Origin: Bacillota bacterium
Lineage (GTDB): Bacteria > Bacillota > UBA4882 > UBA10575
DNA length: 44,105 nt
Direction of reading: 5' to 3'
Assembly: GCA_012839115.1 (NCBI GenBank)
Contig: DUNX01000063.1
Span: 1-44,105 of the forward strand
Below are positions 7,123-44,105 of the stretch, piece by piece. Numbering within the stretch: the stretch's first letter is position 1; the number at the start of each line of letters is the position of its first letter. The notes under the pieces were generated by a model. It was not told the DNA's origin. It was given only the letters and a program-made list of their open reading frames with translations, and did no database searches. Made by a program: the position numbers and the translations under genes.

Positions 7123-7791
7123 ATGTTCTATTTATTGCTCAGCCGCCGGCTGGTAAGAAGAGCCATAATAATCCTGCTTTTGCTGGCCCTCGTTTTTACC
7201 TATAAAGATGTGGGGCGATTTTTTTTCCCCTTCCCCTACCGGGAGATAATTGAGGAAAAAGCGGAAAATACCGGGGTTGATCCGCGGCTGGTGGCAGCCT
7301 TGATTTATGTGGAAAGTAAATTCAACCACTTGGCAGTCTCCAAAAAAGGGGCGGCCGGGTTGATGCAGTTGATGCCGGAAACAGGGGAGTGGGCCGCCCG
7401 GCAACAGGGGATGGATTTTGTCCATGACCACCTCTTTGAACCAAAGAAAAATTTGGAGTTGGGCATCTGGTATCTGGGTTATCTCCACCAAGTCTTTGCG
7501 GGAGAGACCATATTGGCGCTGGCTGCCTATAATGCCGGTTGGCCCAAGGTCAGGCAGTGGTTGGATGCCGGCCGGTGGCAGGGGAGTTACGGCGATCTGC
7601 ACAAGATCCCGTATCCGGAGACCCGGCAGTACGTTACCAGAGTTCTCCGGATCTACTATTGCTACAGACATCTTTATTCGCCCGCCGGAGGTGAAGACGG
7701 TGCTGAAAATCGGCTGGGTGGCGTTGGGCTGCCCAAAGAATCAGGTGGATACGGAATTTATGATCGGACTGATGAAAGAGTCGGGCTATGA
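7123..7791 (+). CDS. Membrane-anchored lytic transglycosylase (SLT domain)
   Basis: The 222-residue protein has one N-terminal membrane helix (about residues 12-27) and a Slt-type domain. Landmarks are LIYVESKFNHLAVSKKGAAG with the likely catalytic Glu64, GLMQLMPETG, NLELGIWYLGYL and LALAAYNAGWPKV. Such enzymes cleave peptidoglycan to 1,6-anhydromuramyl products outside the membrane. The domain should end near RVLRIYYCYRHLY, but the frame runs on for about 30 Gly-rich residues that overlap the start of rimO by 92 nt in a different frame. That tail looks like a by-product of the overlap. A sigma-E-like promoter upstream suggests use during spore formation. Confidence 0.9.
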   Translation: MFYLLLSRRLVRRAIIILLLLALVFTYKDVGRFFFPFPYREIIEEKAENTGVDPRLVAALIYVESKFNHLAVSKKGAAGLMQLMPETGEWAARQQGMDFVHDHLFEPKKNLELGIWYLGYLHQVFAGETILALAAYNAGWPKVRQWLDAGRWQGSYGDLHKIPYPETRQYVTRVLRIYYCYRHLYSPAGGEDGAENRLGGVGLPKESGGYGIYDRTDERVGL

Positions 7792-9085
7792 ACAAACAGC
7801 CCGGCCTGAAGAAGCAGATATACTGGCCATCAATACCTGCTGCTTTATTCAGCCTGCCACCGAAGAATCCCTGGACCGGATTGTCGAGTATGCCCGCTAT
7901 AAAAAGGAAAACTGCCGTTTACTTGTGGTCTTGGGCTGTCTGCCCCAGAGATACGGCAGGCAATTGCTGGACCTTCTTCCGGAGGTGGACCTTTGGCTGG
8001 GGACCGGCGGGTATTCCCGCCTACCGGAACTGATCGGCGCCGCTCTTGCCCGCGACCGGGAAAATGGGAAAAGACCCGGGCTTTTTACTGTGGAAAAGCC
8101 GGGATGGTTACCGGAACCCGGATTGGCGCGGGTACTTTCCACCGCGCCGTACACGGCCTATGTTAAGATCGCCGAGGGTTGTGAGAACCATTGCCGGTAT
8201 TGCGTAATCCCAAGGATTCGCGGGCCTTACCGCAGCCGCCCGCCGGAGGAGATCGAACAAGAAGTGCGGGAGCTTGTCGACAGTGGGGTAAAAGAGATCA
8301 ACCTGGTGGCTCAGGATACAACCGCCTACGGGGTCGACCGGGAGGGCTGTTCCGCCCTCCCGCAACTCTTATCCAGGCTGGACCGGATCGAGGGCGATTT
8401 TTGGCTCCGGGTTTTGTACGCCTATCCCGACCGGGTTTCCGATGAACTGCTGGCTGTTTTTTACGGGAGCGAGCACCTCTGTGCTTATCTGGACCTGCCG
8501 TTGCAGCATATAAGCGGGAAAATCCTGAAGGCAATGGGCCGGCACTCCACGCCCGAGGGTATCCTCCGCTTACTGGAGAGGATCCGGCAACTGGTACCAG
8601 GGATGGCGCTGCGTACCACTTTCATTCTGGGGTATCCCGGGGAGACGGAAGAGGATTTTGACGGGCTCCTCAGTTTTTTGGATGTGGCCCGTTTTGACTG
8701 GGTGGGTGCTTTTCCCTATTTCCCGGAGGAAGGTACCCCGGCGGCCGTTTTGAAACCCCAGATTCCCCCGGCGGTACGGGAAAGGCGCCGGCAGGAACTC
8801 CTGGCGAAACAGGAAGCGATTACAGCAGAGAAGAACCGGGCTCTCTGCGGGAAACACCTTAAGGTCCTGGTAGAAAAGAATACGGCCGACGGGTGGGTGG
8901 GCCGTTCCTACCGGGAAGCGCCGGAGATTGACGGCCTGGTGAGGTTGGCGCCGGTGAACTTGCCTGCGCGTACACGCGTCGCGCGTACCCGCGCGATTAA
9001 CCCCGGGGATTTTCTCACCGTTGAAGTGACCGGCGCTGAAACCTATGAGGTATATGCGCGCCTACCGGCGGTTATGCCCCCGTAA
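7700..9085 (+). CDS. rimO: Ribosomal protein S12 methylthiotransferase RimO
   Basis: This 461-residue radical-SAM enzyme adds a methylthio group to an Asp of ribosomal protein S12. The N-terminal UPF0004 domain has LGCPKNQVDTE and INTCCFIQPATEES. The radical-SAM cluster motif is Cys161-x3-Cys165-x2-Cys168 (CENHCRYC), followed by PRIRGPYRSRP; later come YAYPDR and DLPLQHIS. The C-terminal TRAM domain holds GRSYREAPEIDG. The GTG at 7700 has GGAGGTG at correct spacing; GTG 7691 is an alternative. In the TRAM domain an Arg/Ala/Thr-rich insertion (LPARTRVARTRAI) is encoded by a GCGCGTAC-rich alternating tract at 8965-8996, where relatives have a short loop. Confidence 0.95.
   Translation: MLKIGWVALGCPKNQVDTEFMIGLMKESGYEQTARPEEADILAINTCCFIQPATEESLDRIVEYARYKKENCRLLVVLGCLPQRYGRQLLDLLPEVDLWLGTGGYSRLPELIGAALARDRENGKRPGLFTVEKPGWLPEPGLARVLSTAPYTAYVKIAEGCENHCRYCVIPRIRGPYRSRPPEEIEQEVRELVDSGVKEINLVAQDTTAYGVDREGCSALPQLLSRLDRIEGDFWLRVLYAYPDRVSDELLAVFYGSEHLCAYLDLPLQHISGKILKAMGRHSTPEGILRLLERIRQLVPGMALRTTFILGYPGETEEDFDGLLSFLDVARFDWVGAFPYFPEEGTPAAVLKPQIPPAVRERRRQELLAKQEAITAEKNRALCGKHLKVLVEKNTADGWVGRSYREAPEIDGLVRLAPVNLPARTRVARTRAINPGDFLTVEVTGAETYEVYARLPAVMPP
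8965..8996 (+). repeat. CG-rich alternating tract inside rimO
   Basis: Two copies of GCGCGTAC followed by A/C-CGCG lie in tandem within the TRAM-domain codons of rimO and read as Arg-Thr-Arg-Val-Ala-Arg-Thr-Arg. Nearly every step is pyrimidine-purine or purine-pyrimidine. It resembles tracts elsewhere in the window (11831, 23872, 36690, 42943, 43036, 43076). Confidence 0.7.
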
Positions 9086-11804: not shown

Positions 11805-11830
11805 GCCGTATTTAAAGCAAACGGTAGTTT

Positions 11831-11848
11831 CGCGCGCGTGTGCGCGCG
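11831..11848. repeat. Alternating CG/TG tract, potential Z-DNA or hairpin
   Basis: CGCGCGCG-TGTG-CGCGCG is eighteen consecutive pyrimidine-purine steps and can fold into a 7-bp hairpin with loop GTGT. It lies between the spore-protein stop codon and its terminator. Confidence 0.75.
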
Positions 11849-16053: not shown

Positions 16054-16581
16054 CTAGATGAAAAGATGCAGGCGGGAGTTTTCCGCGGCGTTAAGAAAGT
16101 CTTCGGCGTCTCCGGGCTGTAGATGTTCATAGGCGATCAATTCTTCCTGCCGGAGACCGAGGATCTTTAAGGAAGCTTCACAGGCGATAAAATTGACCTT
16201 TCGCTCCATGGCTAGGGCCATAAGTTCTTCGAGGGTTTGGGCTTGGCGTTGTGCCAGGAGGCGGCGGAAGAGGAGACCGCCCAGGCCGGCAAAGTTCATC
16301 CGGGAGAGGCGCGGCTTGGCCGGTCCTGTAGGGAGCAGTGTTTTGAAGACCCTTTCCAGCAGGCTGTTGTTGCCGTTACGGCTACGCCGGAGAAGGGCTG
16401 CACCCCAGAAGGTAAAGAAGATCTGGACCCGGTAACCCCGGCCGGCGGCAGCGCAGGCCAGTGTGAAGGCGGCCATTGCCTTGTCCATATCCCCGCTGAA
16501 AAGAATGATGCTGAATTGTTTTTCTTCTTGACCCGGCAAGGGCGGCAATCCTCTCTTTAAGGAGGGAGTGCGCACGCGCAC
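16054..16581 (-). CDS. DsrE/DsrF-like family protein
   Basis: The roughly 175-residue protein resembles the DsrE/DrsE-like fold, often annotated near sulfur-relay and peroxiredoxin-like proteins. Recognisable parts are FSIILFSGDMDKAMAAFTLA, RGYRVQIFFTFWGAALLRR, LEELMALAMERKVNFIACEASLKILG, and a C-terminal DAEDFLNAAENSRLHLFI. Cys in FIACEASLKILG is at the position of the family's conserved Cys. The frame begins at GTG 16581 inside an alternating GTGCGCGTGCGC tract. A TTG about 14 codons in, after AAGAGAGGA, may be the real start. It is antisense to the surrounding polyamine genes and separates speE from speB. Role unknown. Confidence 0.7.
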   Translation of the reverse strand: MRVRTPSLKRGLPPLPGQEEKQFSIILFSGDMDKAMAAFTLACAAAGRGYRVQIFFTFWGAALLRRSRNGNNSLLERVFKTLLPTGPAKPRLSRMNFAGLGGLLFRRLLAQRQAQTLEELMALAMERKVNFIACEASLKILGLRQEELIAYEHLQPGDAEDFLNAAENSRLHLFI

Positions 16582-21048: not shown

Positions 21049-21936
21049 GTGAAGATTTTGCTTACCGGCGCCAGTGGCCAGCTGGGGAAGGCACTTATGG
21101 CGCAGATTGGCTCAGGCGATCTTCCAGCCGGGACGCATCATTTGCTCCCGGTGGATTTGCCTGAATGGGATATTACCAACCAGGCGCAAGTCTTCTCCAC
21201 TGTCCTGGAGTGGCAGCCGGATGTGGTCATAAACTGCGCCGGCTACACCGATGTGGACCGGGCGGAAGCAAATGAAAAGGAGGCCTTTCGCGTTAACGCC
21301 CTGGGAGCACGGGACCTTTCCGCCGTGGCTTTTCGTGTGGGCGCGAAAATGCTCCAGATCTCCACGGATTATGTATTTGACGGAAAGGCGGCCACGCCCC
21401 GGCGGGAATACCATCCGGTCAACCCGGTCAATGCTTACGGCCGGAGTAAAGCCTGGGGGGAGCGGCTAGTCCGGGAGACCAACCCCTGTCATTTTATTCT
21501 CCGCACCGCCTGGCTCTTTGGGGAGGGGCAAAATTTTGTCCGGAAAATAATCGCCTTGAGCCGGGAAAAAGAGGAGATTTCCGTGGTTGCGGACCAATTC
21601 GGGACCCCTACCAGTGCGGTGGATTTGGCGAGATGTATTTTACGCCTGCTCCAAACCGAAAGCTACGGAACATACCATGCGACCAATGAAGGGGAGTGCA
21701 GTTGGTTTAGTTTTGCCCGGGGAATTCTGGCCTTAACCGGCATAGAATGTAGGGTGAAACCGGTAACCAGCCGGGAACTGGCCCGGCCGGCCCCCCGTCC
21801 GCACTATACAGTCTTGGAAAACTACATGCTCGAATTGAGCGGCCTCTTTAGATTCCGCCATTGGGAGGAGGCCCTTGCCGAGTACCTGCAGGCAGAGGCG
21901 GGTACACGTGCGCAAGAACGGAAGGCGCGTCTGTAA
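21049..21936 (+). CDS. rfbD: dTDP-4-dehydrorhamnose reductase
   Basis: The 295-residue NAD(P)H-dependent enzyme performs the last step of dTDP-L-rhamnose synthesis. It has the Rossmann motif LLTGASGQLGKAL, CAGYTDVDRAE, ISTDYVFDG, the catalytic YGRSKAWGE, and RTAWLFGEG. GTG 21049 gives the standard start KILLTGASGQLG with GGAGGA at 8 nt. ATG 21040 abuts the ribosome site and is less likely. The C-terminus after YLQAEAG is encoded by a GTACACGTGCGCAAG tract (residues GTRAQERKARL) and looks like a recent extension. It starts the rfbD-rfbB-rfbC set; the thymidylyltransferase RfbA is not present here. Confidence 0.93.
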   Translation: MKILLTGASGQLGKALMAQIGSGDLPAGTHHLLPVDLPEWDITNQAQVFSTVLEWQPDVVINCAGYTDVDRAEANEKEAFRVNALGARDLSAVAFRVGAKMLQISTDYVFDGKAATPRREYHPVNPVNAYGRSKAWGERLVRETNPCHFILRTAWLFGEGQNFVRKIIALSREKEEISVVADQFGTPTSAVDLARCILRLLQTESYGTYHATNEGECSWFSFARGILALTGIECRVKPVTSRELARPAPRPHYTVLENYMLELSGLFRFRHWEEALAEYLQAEAGTRAQERKARL

Positions 21937-23715: not shown

Positions 23716-25083
23716 ATGGAAAAGCGATCCGGCAGATGGGAACTGGTTATCACCGTTAACAGCCCGGGAGAGGTCTCCGGCTGGCTTGCCCCTGTGCTCG
23801 ACAGGATCGCACGCGCACGCGCCGGTGAAAAGCTGGACGGGCGACCGGTGACGAGTGATGAGCGACGAGACTGTGCGCACGCATGCGTGGGCGAAGAGTG
23901 GGACTGCCGGATAACTGTCTTTGTCCCACCTTGTCCATTTGCCAGCGGTGCAGAGTGCCGGGTGATCCGGGCGATCCCCGGGGTGGACCTGGTGGCCGGC
24001 CCGGCGGAGACCTTCGCCTATTTGCTGCTTGGGAAGAAACCACAGGGGTTTACCCCTTTACCAAAGGGCGCAGTGCTTTTTTTAGGGGGAGACCTGGCTT
24101 ATGCCGCCCTCCTGGCTAAGCGCTTAAAATACCCGGCCCTCGCTTATACCGAAGGGGTGGCCGGTTGGTCCGGTTCTTTTGCCCGTTTCGCCGTTCCCTA
24201 CCCCTATGTAGGGGACAAGCTGCTGGCAAAGGGCGTTGCCAAAGAAAAGATCCGGCTGGTCGGAAACTTAATGCTGGATGCGGTTGCACCCCGGGAAACA
24301 AAAGCCGGGATACGCAGGCGCCTGGGGGTAGAGGAGGGAACCCCGCTCTTATTATTAATGCCGGGCAGCAGGCCGGCTCATTTTGAAGGGATGCTCCCGT
24401 TTTTCCTCCGCACAGCGGAACTGGTGGCGCAGGAGATTCCCGGGGTCAAGGTGGTTTTGAGCCTCTCGCCCTTTATTGCCGACGCCCAGGTGACCGGGGC
24501 GCTCCGGGGAGAATTGGCTGTTTTGTTCGGGGCCACCGGTGAGTACCACCCGGTGGGAGCGGTGGCGGATAAGGGAGAAGATGCAACCCTTTCCGGCCGG
24601 CTGGTCACTGGAGAAGGGTTATCCATCACCGTCAGCCGTGGCCGGTACGAGCTGATGTCTGCCGCGGATTTGGCCCTCACGATCCCCGGCACCAATACCA
24701 TGGAATTATCTTTTCTCGGCACACCGATGGTGGTCACCCTGCCTTTGCTTTATCCGGAGCGGATCCCCTTGGAAGGTTTGGCCGGATTACTTGGCGGCCT
24801 CCCCGGAGTCGGGAAATTCTTAAAACGCCGCCTCATCCCAAAACTCCTGGAAAAAACGGCCTTTACTGCCTGGCCCAACCGGCTTGCCGGCGAATATATC
24901 GTCCCCGAAATCCGGGGAATGGTGCGACCGGAGGATCTGACCGGAAAAACCGTGGCGTTATTACGGGATGAAGAGGAACGGAAAGCGACGGCTGCGAGGT
25001 TAAAGGCAATAGCAGGAGAGACCGGGGCTGCCTGGAGATTGACGGAACTGCTCCACGAGGTGCTGGCAGAAAGGTATGGATAA
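23716..25083 (+). CDS. LpxB-like glycosyltransferase 2
   Basis: The 455-residue protein has a GT-B/GT19-like layout: ELVITVNSPGEVSGWLAPV at the N-terminus, IPGVDLVAGPAETFAYLL, YPALAYTEGVAGWSGSFARF, IRLVGNLMLDAV, LLLMPGSRPAHFEGMLPFFL, and ADLALTIPGTNTMELSFLGT. It is a second LpxB-family protein near the first and may act on a different acceptor. Residues about 36-67 are an odd Arg/Ala/Cys-rich insertion coded by CGCACGCGCACGCG and TGTGCGCACGCATGCGTG tracts. That insertion falls between the first strand-helix unit and its second strand (RITVFVPPC), where relatives have a short loop. Position after rfbC supports a role in surface glycolipid synthesis. Confidence 0.75.
   Translation: MEKRSGRWELVITVNSPGEVSGWLAPVLDRIARARAGEKLDGRPVTSDERRDCAHACVGEEWDCRITVFVPPCPFASGAECRVIRAIPGVDLVAGPAETFAYLLLGKKPQGFTPLPKGAVLFLGGDLAYAALLAKRLKYPALAYTEGVAGWSGSFARFAVPYPYVGDKLLAKGVAKEKIRLVGNLMLDAVAPRETKAGIRRRLGVEEGTPLLLLMPGSRPAHFEGMLPFFLRTAELVAQEIPGVKVVLSLSPFIADAQVTGALRGELAVLFGATGEYHPVGAVADKGEDATLSGRLVTGEGLSITVSRGRYELMSAADLALTIPGTNTMELSFLGTPMVVTLPLLYPERIPLEGLAGLLGGLPGVGKFLKRRLIPKLLEKTAFTAWPNRLAGEYIVPEIRGMVRPEDLTGKTVALLRDEEERKATAARLKAIAGETGAAWRLTELLHEVLAERYG
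23872..23889. repeat. Alternating TG/CA/CG tract inside LpxB-like 2
   Basis: An eighteen-base pyrimidine-purine alternating tract contains the perfect palindrome CACGCATGCGTG (23878-23889). With a similar tract at 23808-23823 it brackets an in-frame insertion in the LpxB-like gene. Confidence 0.7.
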
Positions 25084-25147: not shown

Positions 25148-26089
25148 ATGGTACAGGTGAAGGCGAGTATCGTCATTCCCACCCGTAACAGAAGGAAGGT
25201 GTTGGAGAGAACCCTCAAATATTTGTTCTTTCAAGATTACCCGCAGGACCAGTACGAAATCATTGTGATTGACGACGGCTCAACCGATGGTACCCACGAG
25301 ATGGTAAGGGCACAGGAATCCCGCTGTAAACTGGTATGCCTGCGGCATGAGGAAAGGAAGGGACAGGCGGTAGCCAGGAACTGGGGGATCCGGGAAGCCC
25401 AGGGCGAGGTGGTCATTTTTATTGATGATGATATTTTTTGTCCCCCGCAATTCATCAGTGAACACGTAAAATACCATGAAAAGGAAGACAACCTCATTGT
25501 CGACGGCCCGGCAATCAACATCGGGGAGGGTGATTTTTCCTTTACGGACAGAGACAAGCTGCTCCTGGCCTTCTTTAATTTCTTCGGCTCGGTTTTTGTG
25601 ACCGCCAATACTTCCTGCCGGAAAGAGCATCTGCTGAAAGCGGAGGGGTTCGATGAGAAGTTCGGTACCGGCTTTGGCTGGTACGACTTGGACCTGGGTT
25701 TTCGCTTAATGGCAATGGGCCTGAAGAGGAAAAAGAACCGGCGGGCCTTTGCCTTTCATTATAAACCCGCCAAAATCCAAAAGGTGGGGTTTAGCTTTCA
25801 GCAGCGGCTGAATAAACAGAAGGACAGGGGGAAAAATGCGGTCTATCTTTATAAAAAGCACCAGTCCAAAAAAGTCGGGCGGCGGGTACGCCTTCATTAT
25901 CGTTGGTATGGCCGGCTTCTCCCTTTAAAAGGGCGGGTAACAGAGAGGGAGGAACCGGTTTTTGAGGCAATGAGCCGGAAAAAGCTCCTCTGGCCATTTT
26001 TATGGAAAATCTATATGATTAAGGCCTATGCTGAAGGCCTGGAAGAGGGGTTCGCGCACACGCGTACAGGCAAGCAAAAAGACGGCTAA
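25148..26089 (+). CDS. Family 2 glycosyltransferase
   Basis: The 313-residue protein has a GT-A domain: SIVIPTRNRRKVLERTLKYL, IIVIDDGSTDGTHE, GQAVARNWGI, and the metal-binding VIFIDDDIF. A GFGWYDLDLGFRLMAMGL segment is typical of the acceptor region. No membrane helix is obvious, so it is probably cytoplasmic or peripheral. GTG 25157 is an alternative start to ATG 25148. It resembles the convergent glycosyltransferase at 26172-27149, suggesting duplication. The acceptor is unknown; LPS or capsule assembly is likely from context. The last codons carry a CGCGCACACGCGTAC tract. Confidence 0.88.
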   Translation: MVQVKASIVIPTRNRRKVLERTLKYLFFQDYPQDQYEIIVIDDGSTDGTHEMVRAQESRCKLVCLRHEERKGQAVARNWGIREAQGEVVIFIDDDIFCPPQFISEHVKYHEKEDNLIVDGPAINIGEGDFSFTDRDKLLLAFFNFFGSVFVTANTSCRKEHLLKAEGFDEKFGTGFGWYDLDLGFRLMAMGLKRKKNRRAFAFHYKPAKIQKVGFSFQQRLNKQKDRGKNAVYLYKKHQSKKVGRRVRLHYRWYGRLLPLKGRVTEREEPVFEAMSRKKLLWPFLWKIYMIKAYAEGLEEGFAHTRTGKQKDG

Positions 26090-36632: not shown

Positions 36633-36689
36633 CTACTCAGGTTTTATTTCTATCAAGCGCGTGCAGCGTATGAACGCACGTAGCGCCAA

Positions 36690-36705
36690 AACGCGCTAGC
36701 GCGTT
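36690..36705. repeat. Perfect 16-bp CG-rich palindrome upstream of lpxI
   Basis: AACGCGCTAGCGCGTT is a perfect palindrome just 16 nt before the lpxI start codon. It lies within a 60-nt stretch rich in GCGCG, GCACG and TGCAGCG elements. Confidence 0.75.
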
Positions 36706-42587: not shown

Positions 42588-43661
42588 ATGGTAATGAATA
42601 GATTTTTTCCTTGTCTGACCATTTTCATCTTGATCTTTTCCCCTTTAACCATGGCTGTGGAAGAGTTGTTTCTTTCTTGCAGCCACCAGGCCTATGAGGA
42701 CCTGGCCGAGTTGGCCCGGGGCGGTTTATTACCGGGATATCCCTGGCAATACATAAGCGAACAACAGAAAGTATTGACCAGGTACGAAATGGCTTATTAT
42801 CTCAAAGGCCTTATTATTCGTTTAGATGATGACCATTCGCCGCCCGTCCTTACCGCCCAGGAAAAATACATATTGCAAAGATTGGTCCAAGAATTCGAGC
42901 GGGAGTTGACAACCCTTGGCCTGGATATGGCTGAGTTTGAACGGGTCGCGCGCGCGCGCGCGACCCCTGTGAAATTGGCATCGGTCTCCGGTTTCAGCGA
43001 CGGATACCTGGAGGTAGACCTGATCCTGCAAGCAAATCGTGCGCGCGCGCACGATACCGTACGCCAACAAGCTGACGCGTATACGCATGCGTATACGCGA
43101 CCTTTCACTCTTTACAGGGATTTGGAGAGAAGGCAGCAGGAGGGGCTGGCGGCCGGCGAGATCTTGCAAGCCACGGCAGGCATTCAGATCGGCAATTTAT
43201 CCCTGGCTACCGGTTATATATATAAAAATCCCCATCCGGGCTTAACCGGGGGAAACTGGCAAGACGCCGGTTTTTTCAGTGGGTCCGACCTGCTCCGGCC
43301 GGAAAAAGAAGAGGATGGAATAGAGAATTATTGGCATATTGATTTTCAGGGAAGGGTCTCCCTTTTTGGGAACACCTCTGTTCATGCGGGTTTACAGTGG
43401 AATCTCCAGCAAGGGCACGACCGCCCATACCATTTTTTCCTCTTTAATCCCCGGGTGAATGCGGGTGTTTCTTTCCAACTCAGCGATTATTTGCGGATGG
43501 TTGTTGATTATCAATGGTATAACGAGTCCACTAGAGGAGAGCAGATGTTACAGACCTTGTTGGGGTTGGAATGGGGGGGCCATGCGCTTTTAACCTTGAA
43601 ATACCAGGCGCTTTCCCTGGAACCGGCATTGATCAGAGGGGAACTGATTTTCCGGTTTTAA
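42588..43661 (+). CDS. SLH-domain outer-membrane beta-barrel protein (OmpM-like)
   Basis: The 357-residue protein has a signal peptide (FFPCLTIFILIFSPLTMA), a single S-layer-homology-like domain (AYEDLAELARGGLLPGYPWQ to TRYEMAYYLKGLI) and a helical linker. A C-terminal region of alternating aromatic/hydrophobic strands follows, ending GELIFRF. The terminal Phe fits the beta-signal read by the BAM machine. OmpM-type proteins in Negativicutes use SLH domains to tether the outer membrane to peptidoglycan; this protein is somewhat smaller. Between linker and barrel the gene contains three perfect alternating palindromes encoding VARARAT, RARAHD and AYTHAYTRP. ATG 42588 follows AAAGGAGCAGGGG. Confidence 0.75.
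   Translation: MVMNRFFPCLTIFILIFSPLTMAVEELFLSCSHQAYEDLAELARGGLLPGYPWQYISEQQKVLTRYEMAYYLKGLIIRLDDDHSPPVLTAQEKYILQRLVQEFERELTTLGLDMAEFERVARARATPVKLASVSGFSDGYLEVDLILQANRARAHDTVRQQADAYTHAYTRPFTLYRDLERRQQEGLAAGEILQATAGIQIGNLSLATGYIYKNPHPGLTGGNWQDAGFFSGSDLLRPEKEEDGIENYWHIDFQGRVSLFGNTSVHAGLQWNLQQGHDRPYHFFLFNPRVNAGVSFQLSDYLRMVVDYQWYNESTRGEQMLQTLLGLEWGGHALLTLKYQALSLEPALIRGELIFRF
42943..42966. repeat. 24-bp perfect palindrome with eight CG steps
   Basis: GGGT, sixteen bases of alternating CG, then ACCC form a perfect palindrome inside the OmpM-like gene. Within the protein it reads Val-Ala-Arg-Ala-Arg-Ala-Thr-Pro. Confidence 0.9.
43036..43055. repeat. 20-bp perfect palindrome with alternating GC core
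   Basis: ATCGT, ten bases of alternating GC, then ACGAT form a perfect palindrome within the same gene, coding for Arg-Ala-Arg-Ala-His-Asp. Confidence 0.9.
43076..43099. repeat. 24-bp perfect palindrome, alternating throughout
   Basis: The half-site CGCGTATACGCA is followed by its exact reverse complement. Every one of the 24 bases alternates pyrimidine-purine. It is the third such element within 160 nt of the OmpM-like gene. Confidence 0.9.
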
Positions 43662-43716: not shown

Positions 43717-44105
43717 ATGAATGATCTTGAAAAACAGCGTAAATTAAGAGAAGCGGTTGAGTATGCTATCAGAACCCATGAAATAGAAGGGTTTGTTTTT
43801 ACTGAGGAAGATAAAGAAGAATTTGAAAGAATAATCAGGGGAGAGATAACCCTCGAAGAGAGCATTAAGAAACATCTTGAAGCAGCTTATGCGGAAGGTA
43901 AAAAATATAAAAAAAAGATAAAAGCTATGAATAACATTGACTCTTATGTTTATCCCGGCACTTATATACTTAGGAATAAATTTGATATGATTTCCCATGA
44001 AGAATTGAGCCGGTATGAACGGGTAATTGCTGCGGCAAGATTAATGCAATTCTATATAAATCCAGTAAAAGGCAATTTTGATTTTGAACATTTCAAAAAA
44101 ATCCA
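43717..44105 (+). CDS. Fic family protein with fused VbhA-like antitoxin segment (partial)
   Basis: The frame is open to the window edge (129 codons seen). Residues 1-57 match VbhA-type Fic antitoxins: LREAVEYAIRTHEIEGFVF, then FERIIRGEITLEESIKKHL. They contain the inhibitory motif (S/T)xxxE(G/N) as Thr20-His-Glu-Ile-Glu24-Gly25. After a Lys-rich linker, DSYVYPGTYILRNKFDM, then RVIAARLMQFY and FDFEHFKKI, match the start of a Fic domain. Fic enzymes usually transfer AMP to proteins; the motif blocks ATP binding until relieved. The catalytic HxFxxGNGR-type loop lies beyond the window. The DNA is visibly richer in A+T than its neighbours, suggesting recent acquisition. GGGAGGGG precedes the ATG. 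Confidence 0.85.
   Translation, partial: MNDLEKQRKLREAVEYAIRTHEIEGFVFTEEDKEEFERIIRGEITLEESIKKHLEAAYAEGKKYKKKIKAMNNIDSYVYPGTYILRNKFDMISHEELSRYERVIAAARLMQFYINPVKGNFDFEHFKKI

What the first reader, a model, noticed from the sequence alone, without database searches (positions are those of the whole stretch)
42943..43099. Three perfect alternating palindromes of 20-24 bp packed into one gene
Within 157 nt of the OmpM-like gene lie three exact palindromes (42943-42966, 43036-43055, 43076-43099) made almost wholly of alternating pyrimidine-purine steps. Such DNA favours Z-form or cruciform structure and is normally avoided. They are in frame and code for RARA/YTHAYT-like peptides in a linker that should tolerate insertion. 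They look like inserted elements, comparable in concept to the Rickettsia palindromic elements found inside coding genes.
Basis: partly seen in the sequence, partly recalled or inferred. Interest (0 to 1): 0.75.

Follow-up and report, generated by a model that had tools for sequence, protein, structure and literature searches.

The report
Genus-wide alternating-DNA insertions inside bacterial genes
Three short mirror-image DNA stretches in an outer-membrane protein gene are real in-frame insertions, and they are the most palindromic examples of hundreds of strictly purine-pyrimidine-alternating tracts that have piled up across the genomes of one uncultured bacterial genus, where such DNA is normally avoided.

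Summary
In detail: perfect palindromes of 24, 20 and 24 bp lie at the stated coordinates. Aligned with two congeners (80% and 77% protein identity) they are clean in-frame insertions. P1 (net 15 nt) and P3 (24 nt) are absent from both. P2 (15 nt) is absent from one and present in the other with two mirror-symmetric changes that keep the palindrome. They are not a repeat family: no copies occur elsewhere in the genome. They belong to a genus-wide excess of strictly purine/pyrimidine-alternating tracts. In 589 kb sampled there are 54 runs of >=14 nt, against 2-7 expected. The window's genome and one congener rank first and second of 398 Bacillota genomes. Other alternations and mono-/dinucleotide repeats are not enriched. 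About 10% of indels of >=8 nt between congeners are such alternating blocks, about 20 times chance. New inserts are G+C-rich (86%); shared tracts diverge mainly by transitions, so alternation persists while letters change. Best reading: recurrent block insertion of CG-rich alternating DNA, filtered for reading frame. MutS is intact, Ku and LigD polymerase are present, and canonical SbcD is missing family-wide. None is genus-specific, so the generator is unknown.

The parts
42588..43661 (+). OmpM-like gene (signal peptide, SLH-like domain, linker, beta-barrel), 357 aa, carrying all three palindromes
   Evidence: ORF; profile match to OmpM structures 8bys/8bym, E 7e-6; AF2 model
42943..42966 (.). 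Palindrome P1: (CG)8 flanked by GGGT/ACCC; net 15-nt in-frame insertion present only in this species. The C-to-G difference at 42945 relative to both congeners is the base needed to complete the outer arm.
   Evidence: gap in both congeners; no RARA at this place in any of 15 homologues
43036..43055 (.). Palindrome P2: 15-nt in-frame insertion shared with congener G001, absent in G002. G001 carries ATCGCGCGCGCGCGCGCGAT, i.e. two mirror-symmetric changes that keep the palindrome.
43076..43099 (.). Palindrome P3: clean 24-nt in-frame insertion, only in this species
   Evidence: unique in the genome with up to 3 mismatches
8965..8989 (.). Alternating tract (TGCGCGTACACGCGTCGCGCGTAC) near the 3' end of ORF 7418-9085; 15 nt longer than in congener G001, which has a shorter alternating tract in place
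11831..11848 (.). Alternating tract CGCGCGCGTGTGCGCGCG between genes, next to a terminator-like hairpin; 17-nt insertion relative to G001
16568..16581 (.). Alternating tract GTGCGCACGCGCAC followed by a T run (intrinsic-terminator-like); G001 has GCGCGCTTGCGCGC, stem kept by paired changes
21902..21914 (.). Alternating tract whose congener copy is also alternating but differs by 6 transitions and no transversion
23808..23889 (.). Pair of alternating tracts 50 nt apart in an ORF (CGCACGCGCACGCGC and TGTGCGCACGCATGCGTG)
26053..26068 (.). Alternating tract CGCGCACACGCGTACA at the 3' end of ORF 25148-26089

Best explanation
In this genus a process, probably still active, repeatedly inserts short blocks (about 9-25 nt, sometimes more) of CG-rich, strictly purine/pyrimidine-alternating DNA at non-homologous sites. 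SHOWN: tracts of >=14 nt are missing in a congener in about half of scorable comparisons, against 1-2% for short runs. They make up about 10% of indels of >=8 nt. Coding inserts keep frame. New inserts are G+C-richer than shared tracts. Shared tracts change mostly by transitions, so alternation survives. INFERRED: the blocks are laid down in one step by low-fidelity, partly self-templated (snap-back) DNA synthesis, probably at breaks or stalled forks, because net lengths such as 15 nt and the lack of a CG seed argue against dinucleotide slippage. Hairpin-templated copying then makes some of them perfect palindromes, as in P1-P3. They are tolerated because alternating DNA holds no stop codon in any frame and because canonical SbcD, part of the SbcCD hairpin nuclease, is absent from the whole family. 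Inside ORFs only in-frame blocks in linkers and ends survive. Here they add RARA- and YTHAYT-type peptides to the OmpM linker.
For: In-frame gaps at all three palindromes. 19 of 188 indels of >=8 nt are alternating against 0.96 expected; by my count these are 15 distinct loci, and 9 of 10 coding loci have lengths divisible by 3, five of them 15 nt. 54 vs 2-7 tracts of >=14 nt. Genus outlier among 398 Bacillota and against same-family genera. Only R/Y alternation is enriched, not other alternations or mono-/dinucleotide repeats. Gapped fraction rises from 1% (4-5 nt runs) to 35% (>=12) and 56% (>=14). New tracts 86% GC vs 63% in shared tracts, p about 0.001 at >=12 nt, but p about 0.25 at >=14 nt. 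Transition/transversion ratio 3.1 in shared tracts vs about 1.1 in short alternating runs, p = 1.3e-4. Mild excess of self-complementarity beyond letter shuffles, p = 0.002 and 0.006; P3 palindromic with p = 0.0014 given its letters. Ku and LigD polymerase present, SbcD above cut-off absent in all same-family genomes tested, MutS intact.
Against: No polymerase or repair gene tested is specific to the genus: Ku, LigD polymerase, MutS and the lack of canonical SbcD are shared with same-family genera that have almost no tracts. Polarity of most indels is not established (three genomes, no close outgroup); only P1 and P3 are clearly derived. Tracts are enriched between genes (17 of 42 against about 10% of sequence), which neutral tolerance can explain but so can function. 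No template or target signature was found. Kept alternation (transition bias) could reflect selection.
Confidence: 0.5

Rival explanations
1. The tracts are functional DNA-structure elements (Z-DNA or cruciform formers) kept by selection, for example as supercoil sinks, terminators or sites for a structure-reading protein. Insertion is the birth step, and alternation, not sequence, is what is selected.
For: R/Y alternation is kept while letters change (ts/tv 3.1 vs 1.1). P2 changes are mirror-symmetric. A terminator-like stem at 16568 is kept by paired changes. Tracts are enriched between genes and near ORF ends.
Against: Many tracts sit inside ORFs and are absent at the same place in congeners, so no fixed positions. 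Transition bias also follows from cytosine deamination. Related genera do without them.
Confidence: 0.25
2. CG-dinucleotide slippage (microsatellite expansion) followed by point mutation.
For: P1 is a pure (CG)8; new inserts are CG-rich.
Against: Exact mono- and dinucleotide tandem repeats are not enriched. Tracts are no more tandem-like than letter shuffles. Most coding inserts have odd net lengths (15, 9, 17 nt). The congeners have no CGCG seed at P1 or P3. MutS is intact.
Confidence: 0.08
3. A family of mobile palindromic elements like Rickettsia palindromic elements (RPE) or miniature transposable elements.
For: Clean, in-frame insertion of palindromic DNA inside genes.
Against: No copies of P1-P3 elsewhere in the genome (P3 with up to 3 mismatches). 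Inserts share only R/Y alternation. They are 15-25 nt, and no target duplication was evident by eye in the inserts listed.
Confidence: 0.05
4. Assembly or amplification artefact of metagenome-assembled genomes.
For: At least the two congener genomes are metagenome-assembled. DNA polymerases are reported to make alternating palindromic repeats without a template (from memory).
Against: P2 is shared by two species. Coding inserts keep frame. The excess is confined to one genus, with two congeners assembled separately.
Confidence: 0.03

Closest known systems
Rickettsia palindromic elements (RPE)
   Same: Palindromic DNA inserted in frame inside protein-coding genes, adding a short peptide, with in-frame survivors (PMC10969869, PMC4316617)
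   Different: RPEs are about 100-150 nt, fall in about ten sequence families and encode a conserved peptide. Here the inserts are about 9-25 nt, share no sequence, and only R/Y alternation is common.
Z-DNA-promoting RY tracts surveyed in prokaryotes (patterns RY12, RY18e2; Bohlin 2009, Huang and Mrazek 2014)
   Same: Same sequence property: alternating purine-pyrimidine runs of >=10-12 nt (PMC2728739, PMC4060949)
   Different: Those surveys find such runs suppressed in most prokaryotes. This genus has about 8- to 24-fold over-representation at >=14 nt and shows insertion as the cause.
Quasipalindrome-associated template-switch mutation
   Same: Makes imperfect inverted repeats perfect by copying one arm from the other; fits the mirror-symmetric P2 changes and the flank change at P1 (PMC7202029, PMC3820800; titles and abstracts only)
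   Different: Known events are small changes at an existing quasipalindrome; they do not by themselves create alternating blocks across a genome.
CG dinucleotide microsatellites
   Same: P1 core is (CG)8
   Different: Most tracts are mixed-letter; tandem repeats are not enriched and net lengths are often odd.

Membership tests
Rickettsia palindromic element or miniature transposable element | Multiple copies sharing sequence in the genome | tested here: not met
   Whole-gene search of own genome finds only the gene itself and the reverse-strand self-matches of P1 and P3; P3 unique with up to 3 mismatches
Rickettsia palindromic element or miniature transposable element | Insertion into coding genes preserving the frame | tested here: met
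Rickettsia palindromic element or miniature transposable element | Length about 100-150 nt with conserved encoded peptide | tested here: not met
   15-24 nt inserts; no common sequence in the inserts listed
Rickettsia palindromic element or miniature transposable element | Target-site duplication and a transposase acting in trans | tested here: inconclusive
   No duplication evident by eye at inserts; transposase not searched
Dinucleotide microsatellite (slippage) | Exact period-2 repetition beyond composition | tested here: not met
   Period-2 tandem runs at or below expectation in three genomes at 8-12 nt, one or two runs of >=14 nt; tandem score not above letter shuffles
Dinucleotide microsatellite (slippage) | Length changes in multiples of 2 | tested here: not met
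   Net lengths 15 (five coding loci), 9 and 17 nt
Z-DNA-promoting RY tract | Alternating purine-pyrimidine run of >=12 nt | tested here: met
Z-DNA-promoting RY tract | Adopts Z form in the cell | not testable with these tools
   Needs chemical probing or anti-Z antibody mapping
Quasipalindrome correction | Changes that increase arm identity, paired across the dyad | tested here: inconclusive
   P2 differs between congeners by one mirror pair of changes; P1 flank change completes the arm; only a mild genome-wide excess of self-complementarity
OmpM outer-membrane tether/porin | SLH domain, linker and C-terminal beta-barrel | tested here: met
   Profile hit to OmpM structures 8bym/8bys over residues 32-132; AF2 strands from residue 199 (low overall confidence)

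The most novel reading that the evidence does not exclude
A bacterial genus carries a DNA-synthesis activity that writes untemplated, purine/pyrimidine-alternating, stop-free blocks into its genome at a rate high enough to make up about a tenth of its larger indels, feeding new alternating-residue (beta-strand-like) peptides into its proteins.
Probability: 0.2. Interest if true: 0.9.

Novelty: new variant of a known kind. Interest (0 to 1): 0.6.

Why it matters
Alternating purine-pyrimidine DNA is suppressed in most prokaryotes (PMC4060949, PMC2728739). A lineage that gains it by block insertion, and keeps the alternation while the letters change, offers a natural test of whether Z-DNA-prone tracts are harmful, tolerated or used. 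Because such DNA has no stop codon in any of six frames and encodes alternating polar/nonpolar residues, its insertion is an unusually permissive route to new in-frame peptide segments.

Tried and rejected
Dinucleotide slippage and mismatch-repair loss: tandem repeats not enriched, net lengths often odd, MutS intact. Mobile repeat family: no copies. Substitution-patch origin: clustered multi-base substitutions are not enriched for alternation, although one example exists at the G001 gene start. Genus-specific NHEJ or reverse transcriptase: Ku and LigD polymerase occur family-wide; RT absent in the genus. SbcD loss as sole cause: it is missing in the whole family, including genera without tracts. 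Strict palindromy as the general hallmark: only a mild excess over letter shuffles outside this gene. A first DNA alignment with G001 in the wrong orientation was replaced; a first statistics script timed out. The AF2 model has low confidence overall (pLDDT 59).

Full report
WHAT IS THERE. The window (contig C28 of a 2.35-Mb, 97% complete genome) ends with LptA-, LptB- and LptF/G-like genes, a DUF3084 gene, a RuvX/YqgF-like gene and an OmpM-like gene at 42588-43661, so it comes from a diderm Bacillota. Inside the OmpM-like gene are three perfect palindromes at the stated coordinates. Folded as single-stranded DNA they form hairpins of -13.9, -8.3 and -10.3 kcal/mol.

ARE THEY INSERTIONS? The alignment shows three clean, in-frame length differences exactly at the palindromes. 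P1 is a net +15 nt against both congeners, P2 +15 nt against G002 only, and P3 +24 nt against both. In a 16-sequence alignment no other OmpM homologue carries RARA at P1. P2 in G001 reads ATCGCGCGCGCGCGCGCGAT against ATCGTGCGCGCGCGCACGAT here: one mirror pair of transitions, with the palindrome intact. At P1 the C-to-G left-flank change at 42945 is the one that pairs with the right arm. The insertions lie in, or at the edge of, a segment (residues 125-246) that AlphaFold2 leaves at pLDDT < 50, between the SLH-like domain and the barrel strands (the model is poor overall). Simple reading of the code shows that alternating DNA has no stop codon in any frame and yields (H/Y/R/C)(T/A/M/I/V) repeats, which explains the RARA and YTHAYT peptides.

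IS IT MORE THAN THIS GENE? Yes. The window alone has 11 alternating runs of >=14 nt against about 0.6 expected. In sampled sequence G000 has 54 in 589 kb, G001 57 in 733 kb and G002 13 in 227 kb, against 0-7 expected under Markov nulls of order 1, 3 and 5. An 18-nt alternating pattern occurs 123 times in G000 and 93 in G001 (overlapping matches, one strand). These are the two highest counts among 398 Bacillota genomes, and about 45-50 per Mb against at most about 11 per Mb elsewhere; most same-family genomes have 0-3 (similar with 16 nt). Strong/weak and amino/keto alternation and mono- and dinucleotide tandem repeats are not enriched; short period-3 runs and purine-only or pyrimidine-only runs are raised, as is usual for genomes with coding bias. 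The tracts are mixed-letter, about 67-70% G+C, with nearly independent letters. Densest clusters were seen in G001 (L060:1-130, a 37-nt tract with a 13-bp stem at L060:15247-15283, and L069:15300-15570).

HOW DO THEY ARISE AND CHANGE? In syntenic alignments (162, 71 and 80 kb), 19 of 188 indels of >=8 nt are alternating against 0.96 expected from random segments. By my count of the listed rows these are 15 distinct loci; nine of the ten coding loci have lengths divisible by three and five are 15 nt (the insert at 11827-11843 was called coding by the automatic ORF caller but lies between genes). The chance that a run is gapped in the congener rises from 1.1% (4-5 nt) to 35% (>=12 nt) and 56% (>=14 nt), while runs present in both diverge by 21-23% with ts/tv of 3.1-3.4 against about 1.1 (Fisher p = 1.3e-4). 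Tracts missing in the congener are 86% G+C against 63% for tracts alternating in both (p about 0.001 at >=12 nt); the trend is not significant at >=14 nt. Clustered substitutions are not enriched for alternation. Self-complementarity is slightly above letter shuffles in G000 and G001 (p = 0.002 and 0.006); the three in this gene are extreme, P3 having p = 0.0014.

MECHANISM. Shown: block insertion, frame filtering, and maintenance of alternation while letters turn over. Inferred: one-step, low-fidelity, partly self-templated synthesis of CG-rich alternating DNA at breaks or stalled forks, later altered by transitions such as cytosine deamination. Slippage is unlikely given odd net lengths, absent seeds and normal tandem-repeat counts. 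A permissive background is plausible: canonical SbcD (hairpin nuclease) is below cut-off in every same-family genome tested, while Ku and the LigD polymerase domain are present. All of that is shared with tract-poor genera, so the generator remains unidentified. Selection for DNA structure is the main rival.

LITERATURE. Surveys report RY tracts as suppressed in most prokaryotes (PMC4060949, PMC2728739). RPEs are 100-150-nt sequence families inserted in frame in genes (PMC10969869, PMC4316617). In six searches of the held open-access library I found no description of lineage-specific insertion of RY-alternating blocks; that library lacks most subscription papers, so this is weak evidence of novelty.

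VERDICT. The RPE analogy is conceptual only. The broader finding is a genus-level accumulation of alternating-DNA insertions with an unknown source.

Noticed in passing
16568-16581: Alternating tract forms the stem of a terminator-like hairpin followed by a T run; the congener keeps the stem through paired changes (GTGCGC..GCGCAC vs GCGCGC..GCGCGC).
   Followed up: partly
36640-36705 (approx.): About 65 nt present here and absent in both congeners between two ORFs, ending in the 16-bp palindrome AACGCGCTAGCGCGTT (36690-36705).
   Followed up: no
L060:1-130 and L069:15300-15570 (congener G001): Very dense clusters of alternating tracts separated by a few non-alternating bases; L060:1-130 reads through as the end of an open frame.
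   Followed up: partly
L156:674-735 (G000): 62-nt insertion, 84% alternating steps, at an ORF edge, containing repeated GCATGCAC words.
   Followed up: no
L043:3118-3145 (G000): Tandem duplication of an alternating block (ATGCGCACGCGCA ATGCGCACGCGCGTA) between genes.
   Followed up: no
43717-44103: Gene cut by the contig end; its N-terminus matches the VbhA antitoxin family.
   Followed up: no
same-family genomes G000-G012: No genome of the family has an SbcD hit above the curated cut-off; only a partial match, perhaps from a YhaO-like nuclease.
   Followed up: partly
genome G005 (same family, other genus): Second, weaker excess of alternating tracts (28 matches of the 18-nt pattern in 2.5 Mb); origin not examined.
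   Followed up: no
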